From: an uncultured Desulfomonile sp.
Lineage (GTDB): Bacteria; Desulfobacterota; Desulfomonilia; Desulfomonilales; Desulfomonilaceae
DNA: 21,360 nt
Assembly: GCA_937915285.1 (NCBI GenBank)
Contig: CALDNG010000401.1
Span: 1 to 21,360 of the forward strand
Reading direction: 5' to 3'
Shown: one piece after another, positions 6,133 through 17,823 of the stretch
Layout of the letters: each line of letters opens with the position of its first letter
How positions within the stretch are numbered: the first letter of the stretch is position 1
Program-made: the position numbers and the translations under genes
The notes under the pieces: model-generated
The model's database searches: none
Told to the model about the DNA's origin: nothing
Seen by the model: only the letters and a program-made list of their open reading frames with translations

Positions 6133-8076
6133 CTATTGTATAAGTTCCCGTGACCATTGGTATTTATGTCTGACGGAAGGGTTGGTTAATTTATCCACCA
6201 CTTCTTTTGGTAGGGGGCCTGCAGGCGCTTCATGCAGACTGAACTGCGTCGGTCTACCCTGATCGTCCATGAATGAATCCCACTTGAAAAGTTTTCCCGG
6301 GACAAGGCTTTCGGCTTGCATCAGAGGATATATGGCAGGCTTCTCAATTCCTTTGAGGGTTTCCCCCATGCCTGCAGCCTTTGAACTACCGTGGCAATCA
6401 TGGCAACTTCTTCCCAGCTTTGAGGTCGTGTGAGGGGTATAAGGGTTAACTATGAAAGCAGGGCGTTTTTCGCCTGTGTCAGGAACAACCCTGTCCCAAA
6501 CGGCCAAGTCATTCCTGTCCACATACGATATTACATATTGATACATGGGCCTCAAAACCGTGACCATGCCTTTGGAATCAAGACCGAGTGGAGGATTTGA
6601 CCACCTTCGCAGTATCCAGCCCCTGTACCAGACTCCTATTCGGGAACGATTGTTCAGCCAATCAAAAGAATAGGGTGGCTTCCAGTCATCCTCCGGTAGG
6701 TTGGGTGTTCTTCCCTCTTTAGGTGGAATGAGTTCTGCAAATGCTCCGGCGTAACGCTTGATAAGCGCCTGCGCCTGAGGGTCATTCTGCGACGCGTTGA
6801 TAGACCACTTCCAATATTCCGGCCTCTCATCGAGCATCAAATTGAGGCCATAGTCCTGAAAAGACCATGCCGCATGACAAGCTGAACAGGCAAGCTTCCC
6901 GGAATGGGCTTTAATACTGTGAGCCATAATTTCGGCATTCCATTTCGGGATATGCCTCTCTTTTTTCCCCATCAAAATAAGGTTTCCTGCAACGTCTGAA
7001 AGCACCGAGGGGTGATTGCCATCAACATGACAGCCGCTGCAAGTAATCCTGACATTTTTTGTAAGCCCTTCTGGAGGTTTTCCTGTTCCGTGTATCTCGT
7101 CAAGGGTGTGGCAATCCGCACAACCCATTGAAGCCCTGAAGTGGGTATCCGGGCTCAGCCTGTGTTGCTCCGAACCATAAATGGTTGGGGCCTGATGTCC
7201 GCCAACAATTGGCGACTTGAATCCGCGATTATGGTCCTTTTCATAAAGGCCAACGAAATCAGAGCCCACGTGGTTTGAATTGTGACATTTGAGACACGCT
7301 GTCACACCCACGTTTCTCACAATGGCGTGATAAGAAGGTTTTCCGGCGCTGGTGTTGGAGTAGGCAATGTGACAGGCTGAGCATCCCTTGCCTTTGCTCT
7401 CTCCAGGGCGATTGGAACCCTTGGTGTGAAGGTGACACCGCAGACAGGACCTGCGCAGTAGGTCAGCGCCCAGGTTGATGGAAATTTGCTCCCCTTTTTC
7501 CATTCCCTCAGCAGATGAAGCCGACTCTTGAATTGTACTCAAGAAAGATGACGGATCTGGCGCCTCGGTTAGGTTGAATTCGCTCACAGTGGCATAGAAG
7601 GGTTTTGAGCACTCCTTTGCCCCAAAAGCGAACAAGGTTTGGTTGATCATCCTGGGAGACAAAGCCATGGGCGATCGTTTAACCTTGTGCGTCACTTCCG
7701 GGTGACATTTTCCACATGTATTATCAACGACACACAGTGATCCAGGGTCCGGTATAAGTCCTTTGTGCGCCTGTTCCTTGACATCTGCGCTTATGTCACC
7801 GCCGTGGCATTTATCGCATGAAATGGCGTGCGAAGGGTCCATTCGTGAATTATCCTGGTGACATGACACGCATCGGGGAGATCCTTTGCATTCGACCAGA
7901 GCTTCAATAGATGGCTTTGATCCCCACCATTCCGGATAGAGTTCAACCACGCCTGAAGTGATAGCATTGTCTTGCGGAACCAGACTGATGTCTGTTTCAG
8001 TTGGCGCACCATGCCCCGCAGAAATAGTGATGGACGACAAGACAGTCAAGACAAGAATGATCTTTAGCAGTTTCAT
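6133..8076 (-). CDS. Periplasmic decahaem cytochrome c
   Basis: A 647-residue exported cytochrome. Residues 1-24 form a Sec signal peptide (MKLLK, hydrophobic core, cleavage near GHGA/PTE). Ten CxxCH haem-attachment motifs start at C69, C87, C121, C211, C232, C261, C319, C346, C397 and C558. The first nine lie between 69 and 401. The tenth is isolated behind a 150-residue Trp/Pro-rich stretch (about 405-555). No CxxCK-type catalytic haem site is present, so an electron-transfer role is more likely than an octahaem nitrite/tetrathionate reductase. Extra cysteines C63 and C115 each precede a haem motif by C-x5-C spacing, and C156 is unpaired. I do not recognise the subfamily or redox partner. 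It follows the small Cys-rich secreted protein gene by 46 bp on the same strand, and a good Shine-Dalgarno is not evident close to the ATG. Confidence 0.92.
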   Translation of the reverse strand: MKLLKIILVLTVLSSITISAGHGAPTETDISLVPQDNAITSGVVELYPEWWGSKPSIEALVECKGSPRCVSCHQDNSRMDPSHAISCDKCHGGDISADVKEQAHKGLIPDPGSLCVVDNTCGKCHPEVTHKVKRSPMALSPRMINQTLFAFGAKECSKPFYATVSEFNLTEAPDPSSFLSTIQESASSAEGMEKGEQISINLGADLLRRSCLRCHLHTKGSNRPGESKGKGCSACHIAYSNTSAGKPSYHAIVRNVGVTACLKCHNSNHVGSDFVGLYEKDHNRGFKSPIVGGHQAPTIYGSEQHRLSPDTHFRASMGCADCHTLDEIHGTGKPPEGLTKNVRITCSGCHVDGNHPSVLSDVAGNLILMGKKERHIPKWNAEIMAHSIKAHSGKLACSACHAAWSFQDYGLNLMLDERPEYWKWSINASQNDPQAQALIKRYAGAFAELIPPKEGRTPNLPEDDWKPPYSFDWLNNRSRIGVWYRGWILRRWSNPPLGLDSKGMVTVLRPMYQYVISYVDRNDLAVWDRVVPDTGEKRPAFIVNPYTPHTTSKLGRSCHDCHGSSKAAGMGETLKGIEKPAIYPLMQAESLVPGKLFKWDSFMDDQGRPTQFSLHEAPAGPLPKEVVDKLTNPSVRHKYQWSRELIQ

Positions 8077-10162: not shown

Positions 10163-11866
10163 ATGTCAACAGAGAGATTTTTGAATCCAAAACACACTAG
10201 TTCATTTCAAGCTATTATCAAGACAGTTTTCTACGGAAACAACGTAAGAAAAGTCAACTTGAAGGAATGCTACGAACTGGCTAGCAAACAGCCTGGAGTT
10301 ATTGTTACAGATCATCCGATGTATAAAGCCAAAGAAATGGGGCTTCCGGCTGATGCAAAAGTTTTGGTGGTAAATGATGGATCTATATTAGGCAGAACAG
10401 CAAAGGCCAGGGTACTAGTTCCCAAAATGGGCGCTGACAAGGGCAAATATGAGACGATTCTGCGTGAAGCAGTCTACGACATGGGTAACAAGCCACTGAT
10501 CTATGCTAATGCTTACATGGGCCTCGATACGGACTGCATGATCAGGGTTCATTATCTAACCACCGAACGACACGCGATTAATGCGCTTAACGTCTGCCTG
10601 AACTTCCAGCATGAGACGCCTGAATACCTTGAGGAGTACGAGAAATCTACCAGACTGGAAGGCGAAACCGATGTCATTATGATCGCTGACCCTGATTGGA
10701 AGCACCCCGATTTTCCTATTGGATTGGTCATCATAGATCCGGAACATAATGCAGTGGCTGTCCTGGGTTTGAGGTATTTCGGGGAGATGAAAAAGAACCT
10801 CCTGACATTTGGCTGGACGATCGGAGTCAGGGCCGGCATGGTGGCGTGTCACGCCGGAATAAAAGAATTCCATCTGCAGGAGGGGAATTCCTCCATGGCA
10901 GTATTTGGTTTGTCAGGGTCGGGGAAATCTTCGCTCACCAATTCAGCATTCCATGAGGGAGCCATAAAGACTGATCAGGGAGAAAAGGTTACCGTCATAC
11001 ACGATGACGCTTTCAACATCGACATGGCTCACAAGAAGAGTATTGTTCTTGAGCCCAACCTCTTTGACAAAACCGATGGCACCGAGACAGGATCCAAGGA
11101 TATCGATTTCTGGATGACCGCCATGAATCAGATGGTCACAGAGAATGAGCACGGGGCGAAAGTGATCTTTCCTACTGATATCCGGAACAGGAACGGCCGC
11201 GCCATAAAAAGCAGGGAATGGCTTCTGAATCTCGCAGACACCGGTCCTATGCCCAATTACGTGTGTTACCTGATGAAAGACACAACCCTGCCACCTATCA
11301 CTTTCATTTCAAACCACAGGCTGGCTGTCGCAATGGGCGCATCGCTGGCAACCATGAGAACATCGGCCGAGAATGTGGCTGAATCAGAGATGAACCGACT
11401 GGTTTTCGAACCTTTTGCCAACCCTTTCAGGGTTTATCCCCTAACCCTTGATTGCGATCGCTTTGAGGAGCTTTTCAAAAGAGGAGCAGTTGGGGTCATA
11501 CTCAACACGAACAAATTTTACGGATCCAATAGCAAGGAAATAGATATCCCGAAAGAACTGACTCTACCCATGGTAGTGCATTTGGCCAGGGGGAAAATGG
11601 ACATGGAAGACTGGCCGGTGTATCCGGGTCTAAGTCTCCCCAAGAAGGGATCTCTTACCTTTCTTGATAGCGCCTATGATGAAAAGTACACTCCGCCGAC
11701 CACCCTTGACTATTACAAGTTGTTGCAGAAACGAACTCAGCAGAGAATTGACTTTCTGGCTGAACTGACAAGACAGGGTGAAATCCAGGAGAGATTTGTA
11801 GACTCGGTAAGGCTGGCCATGATCACACTTGATGACACCATTAGAGATCTTGAGAAAAAACTTTGA
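10163..11866 (+). CDS. pckA: Phosphoenolpyruvate carboxykinase (ATP-type), divergent
   Basis: A 567-residue cytosolic enzyme expected to interconvert oxaloacetate and PEP with ATP/ADP. Overall similarity to E. coli-type PckA is low, but by-eye alignment keeps the active site: R78 in LGRTAK (for the GRSPKDK arginine), K210/K211 in FGEMKKNLL, H230 in ACHAG, the P-loop GLSGSGKSS (249-257, where GLSGTGKTT is usual), the metal-binding pair D281/D282 in VIHDDAF, R346 in NGRA, and TLPPIT for the usual LPPVS. The ATG has a strong AGGAGG (10153-10158). It is a single gene ended by a strong terminator. In an anaerobe it may serve gluconeogenesis from acetyl-CoA-derived carbon or PEP carboxylation with ATP gain. 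It could instead belong to an uncharacterised PEPCK-like family with altered substrate. Confidence 0.85.
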   Translation: MSTERFLNPKHTSSFQAIIKTVFYGNNVRKVNLKECYELASKQPGVIVTDHPMYKAKEMGLPADAKVLVVNDGSILGRTAKARVLVPKMGADKGKYETILREAVYDMGNKPLIYANAYMGLDTDCMIRVHYLTTERHAINALNVCLNFQHETPEYLEEYEKSTRLEGETDVIMIADPDWKHPDFPIGLVIIDPEHNAVAVLGLRYFGEMKKNLLTFGWTIGVRAGMVACHAGIKEFHLQEGNSSMAVFGLSGSGKSSLTNSAFHEGAIKTDQGEKVTVIHDDAFNIDMAHKKSIVLEPNLFDKTDGTETGSKDIDFWMTAMNQMVTENEHGAKVIFPTDIRNRNGRAIKSREWLLNLADTGPMPNYVCYLMKDTTLPPITFISNHRLAVAMGASLATMRTSAENVAESEMNRLVFEPFANPFRVYPLTLDCDRFEELFKRGAVGVILNTNKFYGSNSKEIDIPKELTLPMVVHLARGKMDMEDWPVYPGLSLPKKGSLTFLDSAYDEKYTPPTTLDYYKLLQKRTQQRIDFLAELTRQGEIQERFVDSVRLAMITLDDTIRDLEKKL

Positions 11867-14243: not shown

Positions 14244-15404
14244 ATGATAGAGCGGTTGAAGCATTTCCATTTTAAGACAAGAATCGTGTCAGGGGTAGCG
14301 GCCATTTCCGGCCTGGGTGAGTTAGCTAAATCCATGGGGGCCACAAGATATTTGATGGTTGCCGACCCATCCCTTGAGAGTCATGGAATCCTGGAATCCG
14401 CTCGAAAAAGTCTCAGGGACCACAATGTGAGTGGTGAAGTAAGTTTGAAGGTTGAGCCTGAGCCGTATCTAGACAACGCTGATTCTGCTGCGGACATTGG
14501 TCGCGATCTCAAGGCCGACATTGTCATAGGTATTGGCGGTGGTTCGGCAATGGATACAGCCAAAGCGGCGGCGGTATTGCTTACTAACCCCGGGCTTGCT
14601 GAAGCGTATGTGGGATTGAACGTCGTAAAGAAGCCCGGTGTCCCGACGATAATGATCCCGACAACGGCCGGAACGGGTTCGGAAGTCACGTTTACCGCAG
14701 TGTTCACCAACCGGCAGACCAAAGCCAAAGGCGGCATCAACAGTATTCACATGTTCCCCGACGCAGCATTACTGGACCCGGAACTAACCTTGTCCCTGCC
14801 TGCCGATGTTACGGCCTCGACCGGAATGGATGCTCTGACTCATGCCATAGAGTCTGTCACAAGCCTGTCTTCAACAGTTTTCACTGAGAGTCTTTCGTTT
14901 ACAGCGATCCGTCTCATATCTGCCAGCTTGCGACGAGCAGTTTACAGGGGTACTGACATTGAGGCACGTGAAAACATGCTATTGGGCAGCCTTTTCGGCG
15001 GATTGGCGTTAGCGGACGCAGGAGTGGGCGCAGCTCACGCCCTGGCTTACCCATTGGGTGGTAATTACAGGATTCCGCATGGCCTGGCTAATGCTGTTCT
15101 TATTCCACATGTAATGGAATTCAATCTCCCTGCAGCCGAAAGATCAATGGCTCTTATTGCGCAAAGCATGGGAGAGTCAGTGGAAAGCCTTTCTACGAGG
15201 TGGGCGGCTGAGGCGGCCGTGGATGGTGTGAGGACCCTGTGTGACGACATCAATATTCCTGGGGGACTTTCTGAAATAGGAGTTCCTTTCGAGGACATTC
15301 CAATGCTCGTAGAGGGAGCCCTAAAGGTCACGAGGCCGGTTGAGAACAACCCCAGGAAGTTGGGCGCAGAAGAAGCGACGTTAATTTATGAGGCGGCCTT
15401 CTAG
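14244..15404 (+). CDS. kdnB: Iron-type alcohol dehydrogenase, probable Kdo C8 oxidase (KdnB-like)
   Basis: A 386-residue group III (iron-containing) alcohol dehydrogenase family protein. Seen directly: nucleotide-binding GIGGGSAMDTAK (96-107), PTTAGTGSEVT (139-149), and the four expected metal ligands D196, H200 (MDALTHAIES), H265 (AHALAYPLGG) and H279 (IPHGLANAVLIPH). The family covers many alcohol substrates, so the specific call rests on context. It is followed by a DegT-type aminotransferase and a CMP-Kdo synthetase, the same trio as Shewanella kdnB-kdnA-kdsB. There KdnB oxidises the Kdo C8 hydroxyl to an aldehyde for transamination. Shewanella KdnB was reported to use metal and O2 rather than NAD(P); the GGGS motif here leaves NAD(P) use open. 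ATG is preceded by GAGAGG. A generic fermentative dehydrogenase is the main alternative. Confidence 0.75.
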   Translation: MIERLKHFHFKTRIVSGVAAISGLGELAKSMGATRYLMVADPSLESHGILESARKSLRDHNVSGEVSLKVEPEPYLDNADSAADIGRDLKADIVIGIGGGSAMDTAKAAAVLLTNPGLAEAYVGLNVVKKPGVPTIMIPTTAGTGSEVTFTAVFTNRQTKAKGGINSIHMFPDAALLDPELTLSLPADVTASTGMDALTHAIESVTSLSSTVFTESLSFTAIRLISASLRRAVYRGTDIEARENMLLGSLFGGLALADAGVGAAHALAYPLGGNYRIPHGLANAVLIPHVMEFNLPAAERSMALIAQSMGESVESLSTRWAAEAAVDGVRTLCDDINIPGGLSEIGVPFEDIPMLVEGALKVTRPVENNPRKLGAEEATLIYEAAF

Positions 15405-15499
15405 TTTTTACCAAAGTTGATGGCTGAACGGTTTTGAGGCTGTTTTGAATAAAGCGCAGACGAATTGCAAATGCGCACAGATATCACCAGGAGAATAAG

Positions 15500-16705
15500 A
15501 TGCCAGGCTATGAGTGGATCGGCGACAAGGAGCGTGAACAGGTAAACCAGGTCTTTGATACCGGCATACTCTTCAGATATGAATTTAAGAATGAGAGAAA
15601 CGGGGTTTACAAGGTTAGGGAGTTTGAAGAGAAATTTGCGGCTTTCAACGGAACCCCCTATGCCCAGGCCGTCACTTCAGGCACTGCTGCCCTGAAGGTG
15701 GCCATGGCTGCTCTAGGAATACAGCCGGGTGATGAAATCATTACCCAGGGATTCACTTTCATCGCTACCTTTGAGGCGATAATTGAGGCCGGCGCCATAC
15801 CGGTTCCCTGTGAAATCGATGACACCCTGAATCTTGACCCGGAAGATTTCCGAAAGAAGATAACACAAAAAACTGCCGCAGTAATTCCTGTTCACATGCT
15901 GGGATCTCCTGCAAGGATCAACGAAATAATCCAGATCGCATCGCAGAAGGGCATCAAGGTCCTGGAAGACACCGCTCAGGCTCTGGGCGCATCGGTGAAT
16001 GGAAAAAAAGTTGGATCCATTGGGCATGCAGGAACATTTTCATTCGATTTCTATAAAACGATCACTACCGGTGAAGGTGGGATGGTCATAACAAATGACC
16101 AGAATACATACGTCAGGGCCTCGGAATACGCTGACCACGGTCACGACCATAACCCCGCAGTCGGCAGAGCCCTCGAAGGAAGAAGTTTTCTAGGCTTCAA
16201 CTATCGAATGAACGAAATGCAGGGCGCAGTTGGTTTAGCCCAGCTAGAACGGTTACCAGAAATACTGAAGGTTCAGAAAAACAATCAGGAGAAAATCAGG
16301 AGCCTGTTGGGAAGCATCAAAAATATTGAACTGAGGGCTTTACCAGAGGGAGCGCAGGACAGTCATACGCACCTGTGTTTCTTTCTGCCTGATTCTAACA
16401 AAACCCTGGAATTCCATAAACGCCTCACATCCAACGGTGTTAGCGCAATCCACTTCCAGAATAATCTATGGCATTTTCTGCCCAACTGGGAGCACTTGAT
16501 TGGCCAGAAGACTGCGTGGCCCGGTTGTTTCCCCTTCGGGAAACCATACTGCCAGTCGGAAATCAGTTATTCCCCTGACATGCTCCCGAGGTCCGCTGAC
16601 TACCTTTCAAGGACCATAGTGCTTCCAATCAGTCTGAAACTCGACCGAGCTTCCATAGACAGGATATGCAATGAAATAGAAAACATATCCAGGGATATTC
16701 TGTAG
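15500..16705 (+). CDS. kdnA: DegT/DnrJ/EryC1-family aminotransferase, probable Kdo8N synthase (KdnA-like)
   Basis: A 401-residue PLP-dependent sugar aminotransferase. Hallmarks: substrate/PLP segment TSGTAALKVAMAAL (59-72), VLEDTAQALGA with D157 and Q160 contacting PLP, Schiff-base lysine K186 in SFDFYKTITTGEGGM, and YRMNEMQGAVGLAQLERLPE. Length is typical. Family members aminate keto- or aldehyde-sugars using glutamate. Placed between an iron-type dehydrogenase and CMP-Kdo synthetase, the best inference is amination of 8-oxo-Kdo to 8-amino-3,8-dideoxy-manno-octulosonate (Kdo8N), as for Shewanella KdnA. ATG has AGGAG a few bases upstream. It lies 95 bp after the dehydrogenase gene and 12 bp before kdsB. 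Another C-terminal amino-sugar pathway is possible, but no nucleotide-sugar dehydratase or epimerase is nearby. Confidence 0.78.
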   Translation: MPGYEWIGDKEREQVNQVFDTGILFRYEFKNERNGVYKVREFEEKFAAFNGTPYAQAVTSGTAALKVAMAALGIQPGDEIITQGFTFIATFEAIIEAGAIPVPCEIDDTLNLDPEDFRKKITQKTAAVIPVHMLGSPARINEIIQIASQKGIKVLEDTAQALGASVNGKKVGSIGHAGTFSFDFYKTITTGEGGMVITNDQNTYVRASEYADHGHDHNPAVGRALEGRSFLGFNYRMNEMQGAVGLAQLERLPEILKVQKNNQEKIRSLLGSIKNIELRALPEGAQDSHTHLCFFLPDSNKTLEFHKRLTSNGVSAIHFQNNLWHFLPNWEHLIGQKTAWPGCFPFGKPYCQSEISYSPDMLPRSADYLSRTIVLPISLKLDRASIDRICNEIENISRDIL

Positions 16706-16717
16706 GCCGGAAGTTAT

Positions 16718-17473
16718 ATGGGGAAAGAGTCAATCAGGATTGTAGGTTTTATTCCAGCCAGGGCAGCGTCTTCACGTTTCCCTGGCAAACCATTGGCTGA
16801 TATTTGTGGCAAGCCGATGATCGTCAGGGTTTATGAACGGGCTCTTGAATGCGATTCCCTGAGTGACGTTTACGTGGCTACAGATTCGACCGTCATACTG
16901 GATTGTGTAACTGAACACGGCGCAAAAGGAGTTATCACGGGTAGTGATCATCCGAGTGGCACCGACCGGATAGCGGAAGCTGCCAATCTGACAGGCATGG
17001 GGCCCGATGACATAGTTGTCAACATACAGGGAGATCAACCTCTCTTTGAACCGCTGATGGTTACTCAGGTCGTTGCGCCACTTGTAGAGGATGACTCCAT
17101 ACCCATGAGCACCCTGATCTACCGCATAGTTCGTGATGAGGAAATAAATCATCCCAACGCCGTTAAGACAGTTTTTGACAGGGAAGGATTCGCTCTCTAC
17201 TTCTCAAGAGCCACGATTCCCTATTGCAGGGAGAATGGAACCACATGCGATTTTTTCAAGCATCACGGCGTATACGCCTATCGAAAGGATTTTCTGGATC
17301 AATTCGTCAAGCTGCCTGTCGGATACCTGGAAGACAAGGAGAGGCTCGAGCAACTCAGAGCTTTGGAGAACGGCTATAAGATCAAGGTAGTATTGACCGA
17401 ATTCGATTCCATCGAGGTCGATACCCCCGAGGATCTGAGACGGGTAAACGAGATTTATTCAAACATGGTTTGA
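16718..17473 (+). CDS. kdsB: 3-deoxy-manno-octulosonate cytidylyltransferase (CMP-Kdo or CMP-Kdo8N synthetase)
   Basis: A 251-residue enzyme that transfers CMP from CTP to Kdo (or Kdo8N), activating it for the transferase that attaches it to lipid A. Hallmarks: IPARAASSRFPGKPLADICGKPM near the N-terminus, GTDRIAEA (81-88), NIQGDQPL (102-109), YFSRATIPY (161-169), the substrate histidine region FFKHHGVYAYR, LEQLRAL, and C-terminal EVDTPEDLRRV. Compared with E. coli KdsB, IPWDRD is IPYCRE and QGDEP is QGDQP, so parts of the substrate pocket differ; this may reflect an 8-amino substrate but could be simple drift. It follows the aminotransferase gene by 12 bp with a GGAAG ribosome site, so it is probably in its operon. 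Confidence 0.93.
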   Translation: MGKESIRIVGFIPARAASSRFPGKPLADICGKPMIVRVYERALECDSLSDVYVATDSTVILDCVTEHGAKGVITGSDHPSGTDRIAEAANLTGMGPDDIVVNIQGDQPLFEPLMVTQVVAPLVEDDSIPMSTLIYRIVRDEEINHPNAVKTVFDREGFALYFSRATIPYCRENGTTCDFFKHHGVYAYRKDFLDQFVKLPVGYLEDKERLEQLRALENGYKIKVVLTEFDSIEVDTPEDLRRVNEIYSNMV

Positions 17474-17604: not shown

Positions 17605-17823
17605 GTGAGTAGGGACGACAATGTCAAGGTAGAAGGAACTGTTGTAAAAGTTCATTCTGGTGGAATGTATCAAGTGGAAACAGATGACGGAAAGAGCATC
17701 CGGACAAAACTATCCGGGCGTATGTCCCGATTCCGTATTAAAGTACTTTTGGGTGACCGGGTAACAGTGGCCCTCTCCCCCTATGACTTGAGCCATGGGT
17801 TGATTGTCTATCGAGGGAAGTGA
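17605..17823 (+). CDS. infA: Translation initiation factor IF-1
   Basis: A 72-residue single OB-fold (S1-type) protein that binds the ribosomal A site during initiation. Hallmarks: VKVEGTVVKVHSGGMYQVETDDG, LSGRMSRFRIKVLLGDRVTV, and the closing ALSPYDLSHGLIVYR, all matching the IF-1 pattern over its full length. The start is GTG (17605), with an AGAGG 11 bases upstream. It lies 131 bp downstream of kdsB on the same strand; no terminator is visible between them, so read-through from the LPS genes is possible. Confidence 0.95.
   Translation: MSRDDNVKVEGTVVKVHSGGMYQVETDDGKSIRTKLSGRMSRFRIKVLLGDRVTVALSPYDLSHGLIVYRGK

What the first reader, a model, noticed from the sequence alone, without database searches (positions are those of the whole stretch)
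14244..17473. Kdo8N (8-amino-Kdo) biosynthesis cassette outside Shewanella
Iron-type dehydrogenase, DegT-family aminotransferase and KdsB lie in a row behind one candidate promoter. This is the gene content of Shewanella oneidensis kdnB-kdnA-kdsB, the only route I know to 8-amino-3,8-dideoxy-manno-octulosonate, which was described as restricted to Shewanella. Catalytic residues of all three are intact (D196/H200/H265/H279; K186; NIQGDQPL and LEQLR). No other sugar-nucleotide genes are present, so Kdo itself is the likely substrate. If true, this organism has an amino-sugar inner-core LPS with an extra positive charge, expected to alter resistance to cationic peptides.
Basis: partly seen in the sequence, partly recalled or inferred. 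Interest (0 to 1): 0.78.

Follow-up and report, generated by a model that had tools for sequence, protein, structure and literature searches.

The report
Amino-Kdo operon with swapped dehydrogenase
Three neighbouring genes of an uncultured Desulfomonile-like bacterium probably build an amino version of a core outer-membrane sugar known from Shewanella, but with a different dehydrogenase for the first step, so the sugar may be more widespread than thought.

Summary
The three genes are real: an iron-type dehydrogenase (14244-15404), a DegT aminotransferase (15500-16705) and KdsB (16718-17473).

The aminotransferase is a KdnA relative: 41% identity to the solved Shewanella enzyme, its best match by sequence and by fold.

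The dehydrogenase is not KdnB. It belongs to a separate KdnA-linked group, here called adhA.

In 395 genomes of the phylum (Desulfobacterota), 93 have KdnA: 63 with adhA, 27 with true KdnB, none with both, 3 with neither. In the other 302 neither enzyme reached the thresholds used. adhA lies upstream of kdnA, KdnB downstream. On the KdnA tree the partner changes inside the window's own clade. I conclude that adhA does KdnB's job, oxidising Kdo at C8, and that the operon makes CMP-Kdo8N.

The cassette KdsB is the only KdsB over the family cut-off in 7 of 7 closest genomes, which also carry KdsA, KdsC and a Kdo-transferase-family gene. No chemistry was measured, and the window's own genome is not held.

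New variant of a known pathway.

The parts
14244..15404 (+). adhA: group III (iron-type) alcohol dehydrogenase, 386 aa, proposed Kdo 8-dehydrogenase; not KdnB. Metal ligands D196, H200, H265, H279; GGGS dinucleotide motif 98-101; Asp41
15500..16705 (+). kdnA: PLP-dependent DegT aminotransferase, 401 aa, PLP lysine K186; proposed transaminase giving Kdo8N
16718..17473 (+). kdsB: CMP-Kdo synthetase family, 251 aa, proposed to activate Kdo8N (and/or Kdo); D230-S231-x-E233 signature

Best explanation
The operon makes CMP-Kdo8N for the LPS inner core. (1) adhA, a metal-dependent dehydrogenase from a different group III subfamily than KdnB and probably using NAD+, oxidises the C8 alcohol of Kdo to the aldehyde. 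(2) KdnA transfers an amino group to C8, giving Kdo8N. (3) KdsB activates it with CTP, and a Kdo transferase uses it. Shown here: gene content, KdnA relationship, non-orthology of adhA and KdnB, mutual exclusion of the two, change of partner on the KdnA tree, a single KdsB over cut-off and the presence of Kdo-supply and transferase genes in close relatives. Inferred: every chemical step, the cofactor, the C8 position, and the presence of Kdo8N in LPS.
For: KdnA: best PDB match 5k8b at 304 bits, next 197; best fold match 5k8b, TM 0.90. Trio in L001-L007, 7 of 7. In one draw of 395 genomes of the phylum: 93 with KdnA, of which 63 adhA, 27 KdnB, 0 both, 3 neither (18.3 with both expected under independence); 0 of 302 others reach the adhA or KdnB thresholds. 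In 48 genomes behind first-scan loci (4 also in the draw): KdnB 21, adhA 20, both 0, neither 7. KdnA-linked ADHs are one side of one branch against 34 other ADHs, SH-aLRT 97. KdnB groups nested among adhA-type rows on the KdnA tree. In G109 and G036, where adhA is away from kdnA, kdsB is next to adhA. Single KdsB over cut-off in 7 of 7 close relatives; KdsA, KdsC and PF04413 in 7 of 7.
Against: No enzyme assay or LPS chemistry. KdnA is only 41% identical to the characterised enzyme. The own genome is not held. The exclusion statistics ignore shared descent, and the thresholds (E 1e-75, 430 and 536 bits) were set after seeing scores. The adhA profile was built from KdnA-adjacent enzymes. When KdnB is used as root, the other ADHs nest inside the KdnA-linked ones, so 'one clade' depends on the root. 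3 of 93 and 7 of 48 KdnA genomes show neither enzyme. 13 of 92 KdnA genomes have more than one KdsB match at 1e-35. KdnB orthologues occur in the same phylum, so adhA is not simply the anaerobes' version.
Confidence: 0.72

Rival explanations
1. The adhA/KdnA pair makes a different amino-ulosonate: adhA oxidises another hydroxyl of Kdo, or a related acid, and this KdnA clade has shifted its position or substrate.
For: KdnA is 41% identical to the characterised enzyme; adhA is not KdnB; many DegT enzymes act on other sugars.
Against: Inside the same KdnA clade two groups, 2 and 9 rows, have KdnB and no adhA at the threshold, so the same kind of KdnA goes with the C8-acting enzyme; kdsB sits beside both types.
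Confidence: 0.15
2. adhA is a general alcohol or aldehyde dehydrogenase that happens to sit beside kdnA, and KdnA takes an aldehyde made by another enzyme.
For: Its closest solved relatives are methanol, 1,3-propanediol and lactaldehyde dehydrogenases.
Against: It is tied to KdnA across the phylum draw, is found elsewhere in KdnA genomes when not adjacent, and never occurs with KdnB there; the other ADHs of the same genomes fall in another part of the tree.
Confidence: 0.08
3. adhA is a fast-evolving KdnB orthologue.
For: Same superfamily, same metal ligands, same gene company.
Against: On profiles of each type, full-length adhA genes beside KdnA in the draw score 538-649 on their own and 111-173 on the KdnB profile. 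KdnB of the same phylum scores 432-599 to a KdnB query. FucO- and AdhE-type ADHs group with adhA, not with KdnB. The two also lie on opposite sides of kdnA.
Confidence: 0.03

Closest known systems
Kdo8N pathway of Shewanella oneidensis (KdnB, KdnA, KdsB; Gattis et al. 2013: title seen in reference lists, abstract recalled, paper not held)
   Same: KdnA relative, KdsB, an iron-type dehydrogenase, gathered in one place; presumably Kdo as substrate
   Different: Dehydrogenase from another subfamily, upstream of kdnA; in the loci with true KdnB seen here it is downstream
KdnA, PDB 5k8b
   Same: Best match by sequence (304 bits) and fold (TM 0.90); shared MPGxE, DHGHDH and WH...NW stretches
   Different: 41% identity; the window belongs to the adhA-associated clade
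KdnB, PDB 5k8c
   Same: Group III dehydrogenase superfamily, GGGS motif and metal ligands
   Different: 110 bits only; different part of the tree; recalled as using O2 rather than NAD(P)
Lactaldehyde, methanol and 1,3-propanediol dehydrogenases (FucO type)
   Same: Closest characterised dehydrogenases by PDB score; FucO 35% identity over 372 columns, Asp41 aligned with FucO Asp39, a residue recalled as favouring NAD
   Different: Below every NCBIfam equivalog cut-off listed; apart from the KdnA-linked ADHs in the tree
KdsB (TIGR00466)
   Same: Over the cut-off, catalytic motifs intact
   Different: D-S-x-E signature where E. coli has P-G-T-G

Membership tests
KdnA | Closest to characterised KdnA among DegT enzymes | tested here: met
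   5k8b first in the PDB by sequence and by fold
KdnA | PLP lysine and motifs shared with Shewanella-type KdnA | tested here: met
   K186 and DHGHDH invariant in the 11-row alignment A1
KdnA | Makes Kdo8N from 8-oxo-Kdo and glutamate | not testable with these tools
   Needs an enzyme assay
KdnB (cd08184-type 8-oxidase) | Sequence in the KdnB subfamily | tested here: not met
   110 bits to 5k8c, many other ADHs score higher; tree
KdnB (cd08184-type 8-oxidase) | Group III metal ligands and dinucleotide motif | tested here: met
   D196, H200, H265, H279 and GGGS invariant in A2
KdnB (cd08184-type 8-oxidase) | Oxidises Kdo at C8 | not testable with these tools
   Only genetic equivalence is shown
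KdsB | Over the TIGR00466 cut-off with catalytic motifs | tested here: met
   231 bits, cut-off 155; motifs
Kdo8N pathway | Kdo supply and transfer genes in the genome | tested here: met
   KdsA, KdsC and PF04413 in 7 of 7 closest genomes; the window's own genome is not held and KdsD was not searched
Kdo8N pathway | No second KdsB bypassing the cassette | tested here: met
   One over cut-off in 7 of 7 closest genomes, at the cassette
Kdo8N pathway | Kdo8N in the LPS | not testable with these tools
   Needs mass spectrometry or NMR

The most novel reading that the evidence does not exclude
adhA is an oxygen-independent, NAD-linked Kdo 8-dehydrogenase recruited separately from KdnB and exchanged with it in evolution. 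Because the only KdsB of these genomes travels with the pair and carries its own acidic D-S-x-E signature, Kdo8N has replaced Kdo as the sole inner-core ulosonate in about a quarter of an anaerobic phylum, and with KdnB in many Bacteroidota.
Probability: 0.35. Interest if true: 0.75.

Novelty: new variant of a known kind. Interest (0 to 1): 0.6.

Why it matters
Kdo is the near-universal link between lipid A and core. Kdo8N has been called a hallmark of Shewanella (PMC6357163, passages read). If the reading is right, about a quarter of the sampled genomes of this phylum (93 of 395) have the genes for it, two dehydrogenase lineages serve one step, and the report that KdnB needs O2 (recalled) has to be squared with KdnB orthologues in lineages known as anaerobes. 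It also gives a predicted substrate to an enzyme that databases call only alcohol dehydrogenase, and names cultured organisms in which the LPS can be checked.

Tried and rejected
Rejected: KdnB orthology of the window dehydrogenase; the promoter; a second KdsB in close relatives; plasmid relatives (1026 records match, all under 60% identity, the listed best near 35%); viral contigs (31 pattern matches, none a relative).

Rows moved or dropped: G142 first looked like an adhA genome without KdnA; its contig ends inside a KdnA gene (residues 1-108), so it was moved to KdnA-positive. G289 (adhA cut by a contig end, 458 bits) and G072 (KdnB cut by a contig end) were counted as having the enzyme. 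Without these three moves: 92 KdnA genomes, 61 adhA, 26 KdnB, 0 both, 5 neither, and one adhA genome outside. In the tree the KdnB rows, the KdnB sister, L061 (long branch) and 19 near-copies were left out. G017 has KdnB and also a 477-bit ADH paralogue, below the adhA level. Loci of the first scan and of the draw overlap (L001 and L087 are one genome, and others likewise), so the two sets of counts are not independent, and the 72 KdsB include such repeats.

Led nowhere: KdsB specificity from residues, strong in counts but not independent on the tree; Kdo-contact residues in PMC3149649, of which one unhelpful passage was seen; neighbourhoods of non-adjacent KdnB, where no LPS setting was recognised and my ORF picker missed KdnB in 3 of 13 loci; greedy ORF choice lost KdnA in a few loci, so counts rest. 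The KdnA model has weak stretches (221-233, 339-359) and its alignment held Shewanella-type rows.
Full report
What is there. The window holds three + strand genes in a row: adhA 14244-15404, kdnA 15500-16705, kdsB 16718-17473, with gaps of 95 and 12 nt. ffh lies upstream and divergent; an IF-1-like gene follows kdsB. G+C of the three genes, 0.49-0.53, is that of their neighbours. No genome is held for the window. Its closest relatives are Desulfomonile-like MAGs (L001: 82% KdnA identity, 87% ADH identity). L001-L007 have the trio in the same order, 7 of 7.

The aminotransferase is KdnA-like. Its best PDB match is S. oneidensis KdnA 5k8b at 304 bits, the next 197; 40.6% identity over 399 columns. 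It shares MPGxE at the start, DHGHDH and a WH...NW stretch with gammaproteobacterial KdnA in an 11-row alignment. A predicted model (mean pLDDT 78) matches 5k8b best (TM 0.90, E 6e-39; next E 2e-32). The best 80, which were kept, include Desulfobacterota, Bacteroidota, one Elusimicrobia and one Omnitrophota MAG.

The dehydrogenase is not KdnB. Against the PDB it scores 261 bits to a methanol dehydrogenase and 110 to KdnB 5k8c. A dehydrogenase from a Desulfobacula cassette (L055) scores 530 to 5k8c, so true KdnB exists in this phylum and looks quite different. Loci come in two kinds. In 90 loci from a draw of the phylum, adhA lies upstream of kdnA in 53, KdnB downstream in 19, neither in 18, both in 0. 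In the 80 loci of the first scan the counts are 22, 13, 45 and 0 (same strand, within 2.5 kb). Thirty of the 90 had only about 1.5 kb of flank, and the two sets share genomes.

Whole genomes. In one draw of 395 genomes of the phylum of G001, a KdnA match at E 1e-75 or better is in 92, KdnB at 432 bits or more in 26, adhA at 536 bits or more in 62. All 26 KdnB genomes have KdnA. 61 of the 62 adhA genomes do, and the last, G142, has a KdnA gene cut by its contig end. None has both. Adding G142 and two enzymes cut by contig ends (G289 adhA, G072 KdnB) gives 93 KdnA genomes: 63 adhA, 27 KdnB, 0 both, 3 neither (G019, G217 and G174; the KdnA genes of the first two lie at contig ends). Under independence 18.3 with both would be expected; that ignores shared descent. 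KdnA genes without a neighbouring dehydrogenase mostly have one elsewhere in the genome: adhA in G366, G384, G403, G046, G036 and G109, and 1.3 kb upstream in G170; KdnB in G199, G309, G114, G146, G083, G119, G045 and G189. In 48 genomes behind first-scan loci, chosen mostly because no dehydrogenase was local, and 4 of them also in the draw, KdnB is in 21, adhA (552 bits or more) in 20, both in 0, neither in 7. Of the 16 Bacteroidota among them 15 have KdnB and none adhA. Thresholds were set after seeing the scores: the next match below 536 bits is 517, from a genome without KdnA, and ten further genomes hold a KdnB-like protein at 296-326 bits, one of them with KdnA and adhA.

Trees. Without KdnB, 55 KdnA-linked ADHs are one side of a single branch (SH-aLRT 97) against 34 others: 32 paralogues, several from the same genomes, plus FucO and AdhE. 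Rooted on KdnB, those others nest inside the KdnA-linked ADHs, so whether the group is a clade depends on a distant root. The KdnA tree separates an adhA-associated clade with the window from KdnB-associated lineages with Shewanella and Bacteroidota. The partner label needs 4 changes over 103 rows, which supported branches force; without the odd genome G114, which has two KdnA genes, it needs 3. Inside the adhA-associated clade two groups have KdnB instead: L011 with L021, and nine rows with L139. The direction of change is inferred. One KdnA lineage has thus gone with either dehydrogenase, the strongest reason to think that adhA gives the same product as KdnB.

KdsB and the pathway. In G001-G007 exactly one KdsB passes the family cut-off, and it is the cassette's. 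All seven have KdsA, KdsC and a PF04413 (Kdo transferase family) gene; KdsD was not searched. Over the draw, 356 of 395 genomes have KdsB over the cut-off, so KdnA marks a subset of KdsB-bearing organisms. Of the 92 KdnA genomes, 13 have more than one KdsB match at 1e-35 and at least 3 have none (from the listing, which leaves 4 genomes without a match unnamed). A D-S-x-E stretch just before the VDT motif is in 66 of 72 KdsB from KdnA loci and in 3 of 87 from genomes without a KdnA match. On the KdsB tree only 2 independent pairs stand on supported branches, so this may be shared descent; the 87 are biased to high family scores and the 72 hold some repeats. When adhA lies away from kdnA in G109 and G036, kdsB is beside adhA.

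Mechanism. Proposed: Kdo is oxidised at C8 by adhA with a divalent metal and probably NAD+, transaminated by KdnA, activated by KdsB and transferred to lipid A. The GGGS motif and Asp41 are invariant in 13 rows, and Asp41 aligns with FucO Asp39, whose role in NAD preference is recalled. Gattis et al. 2013 (not held, abstract recalled) reported that KdnB uses a metal and O2. A NAD-linked enzyme would suit anaerobes, but the same phylum also holds KdnB orthologues, so either those do not need O2 or they are silent under strict anoxia.

What is in print. Searches for Kdo8N, KdnA/KdnB, chemical names, KEGG and UniProt ids and for Desulfomonile with LPS or Kdo (first 8 of 1,702 listed) showed me no paper on this pathway in Desulfobacterota or on another dehydrogenase for it; the library is open access only. 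Annotation-level mentions outside Shewanella exist: kdnB in Leptospira (PMC8510873, passages), a predicted gut pathway (PMC13402473, passages), K19714 predicted in pig stomach (PMC10850238, passage), Pseudoalteromonas (PMC9966250, passage), and JGI's name for many KdnA proteins. PMC5125639 (passages) places KdnB in its own FeADH subfamily. Among the 120 listed relatives of adhA, names given by sources are alcohol dehydrogenase or iron-containing alcohol dehydrogenase. Kdo8N genes outside Shewanella are thus partly visible already; the alternative dehydrogenase, its exclusion of KdnB and the changes of partner are what seems new.

Noticed in passing
window 17605-17823 +: Translation initiation factor IF-1-like gene (72 aa, PF01176, GTG start) just downstream of kdsB.
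   Followed up: no
G001-G007 (genomes of L001-L007): The KdsA and KdsC matches lie in one open frame of 471-488 codons in 7 of 7 genomes, which suggests a KdsA-KdsC fusion protein.
   Followed up: no
window 10163-11866 +: 567-aa protein with only a weak match to ATP-dependent PEP carboxykinase (58 bits): a divergent member.
   Followed up: no
window 6133-8076 -: Multihaem c-type cytochrome of 647 aa with cytochrome c7 and c3 matches.
   Followed up: no
G193, G218, G399, G362, G284, G138, G345, G107, G166, G120: A KdnB sister type (296-326 bits to a KdnB query) in ten genomes, nine of them without a KdnA match; its substrate is open.
   Followed up: no
L009, L012, L013, L023 and other Desulfobulbaceae loci: kdnA sits behind pantothenate genes (a PanC-like and a PanD-like protein by eye; shared clusters), with the dehydrogenase elsewhere in the genome or not found.
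   Followed up: partly
G114 (L132, L176): One 6.3 Mb genome has two KdnA genes, one of each clade, with KdnB only: contamination or real double set.
   Followed up: no
G025, G027, G028, G030, G031: In these Bacteroidota kdsB and kdnB lie about 0.5-1.4 kb apart although kdnA is elsewhere (coordinates).
   Followed up: partly
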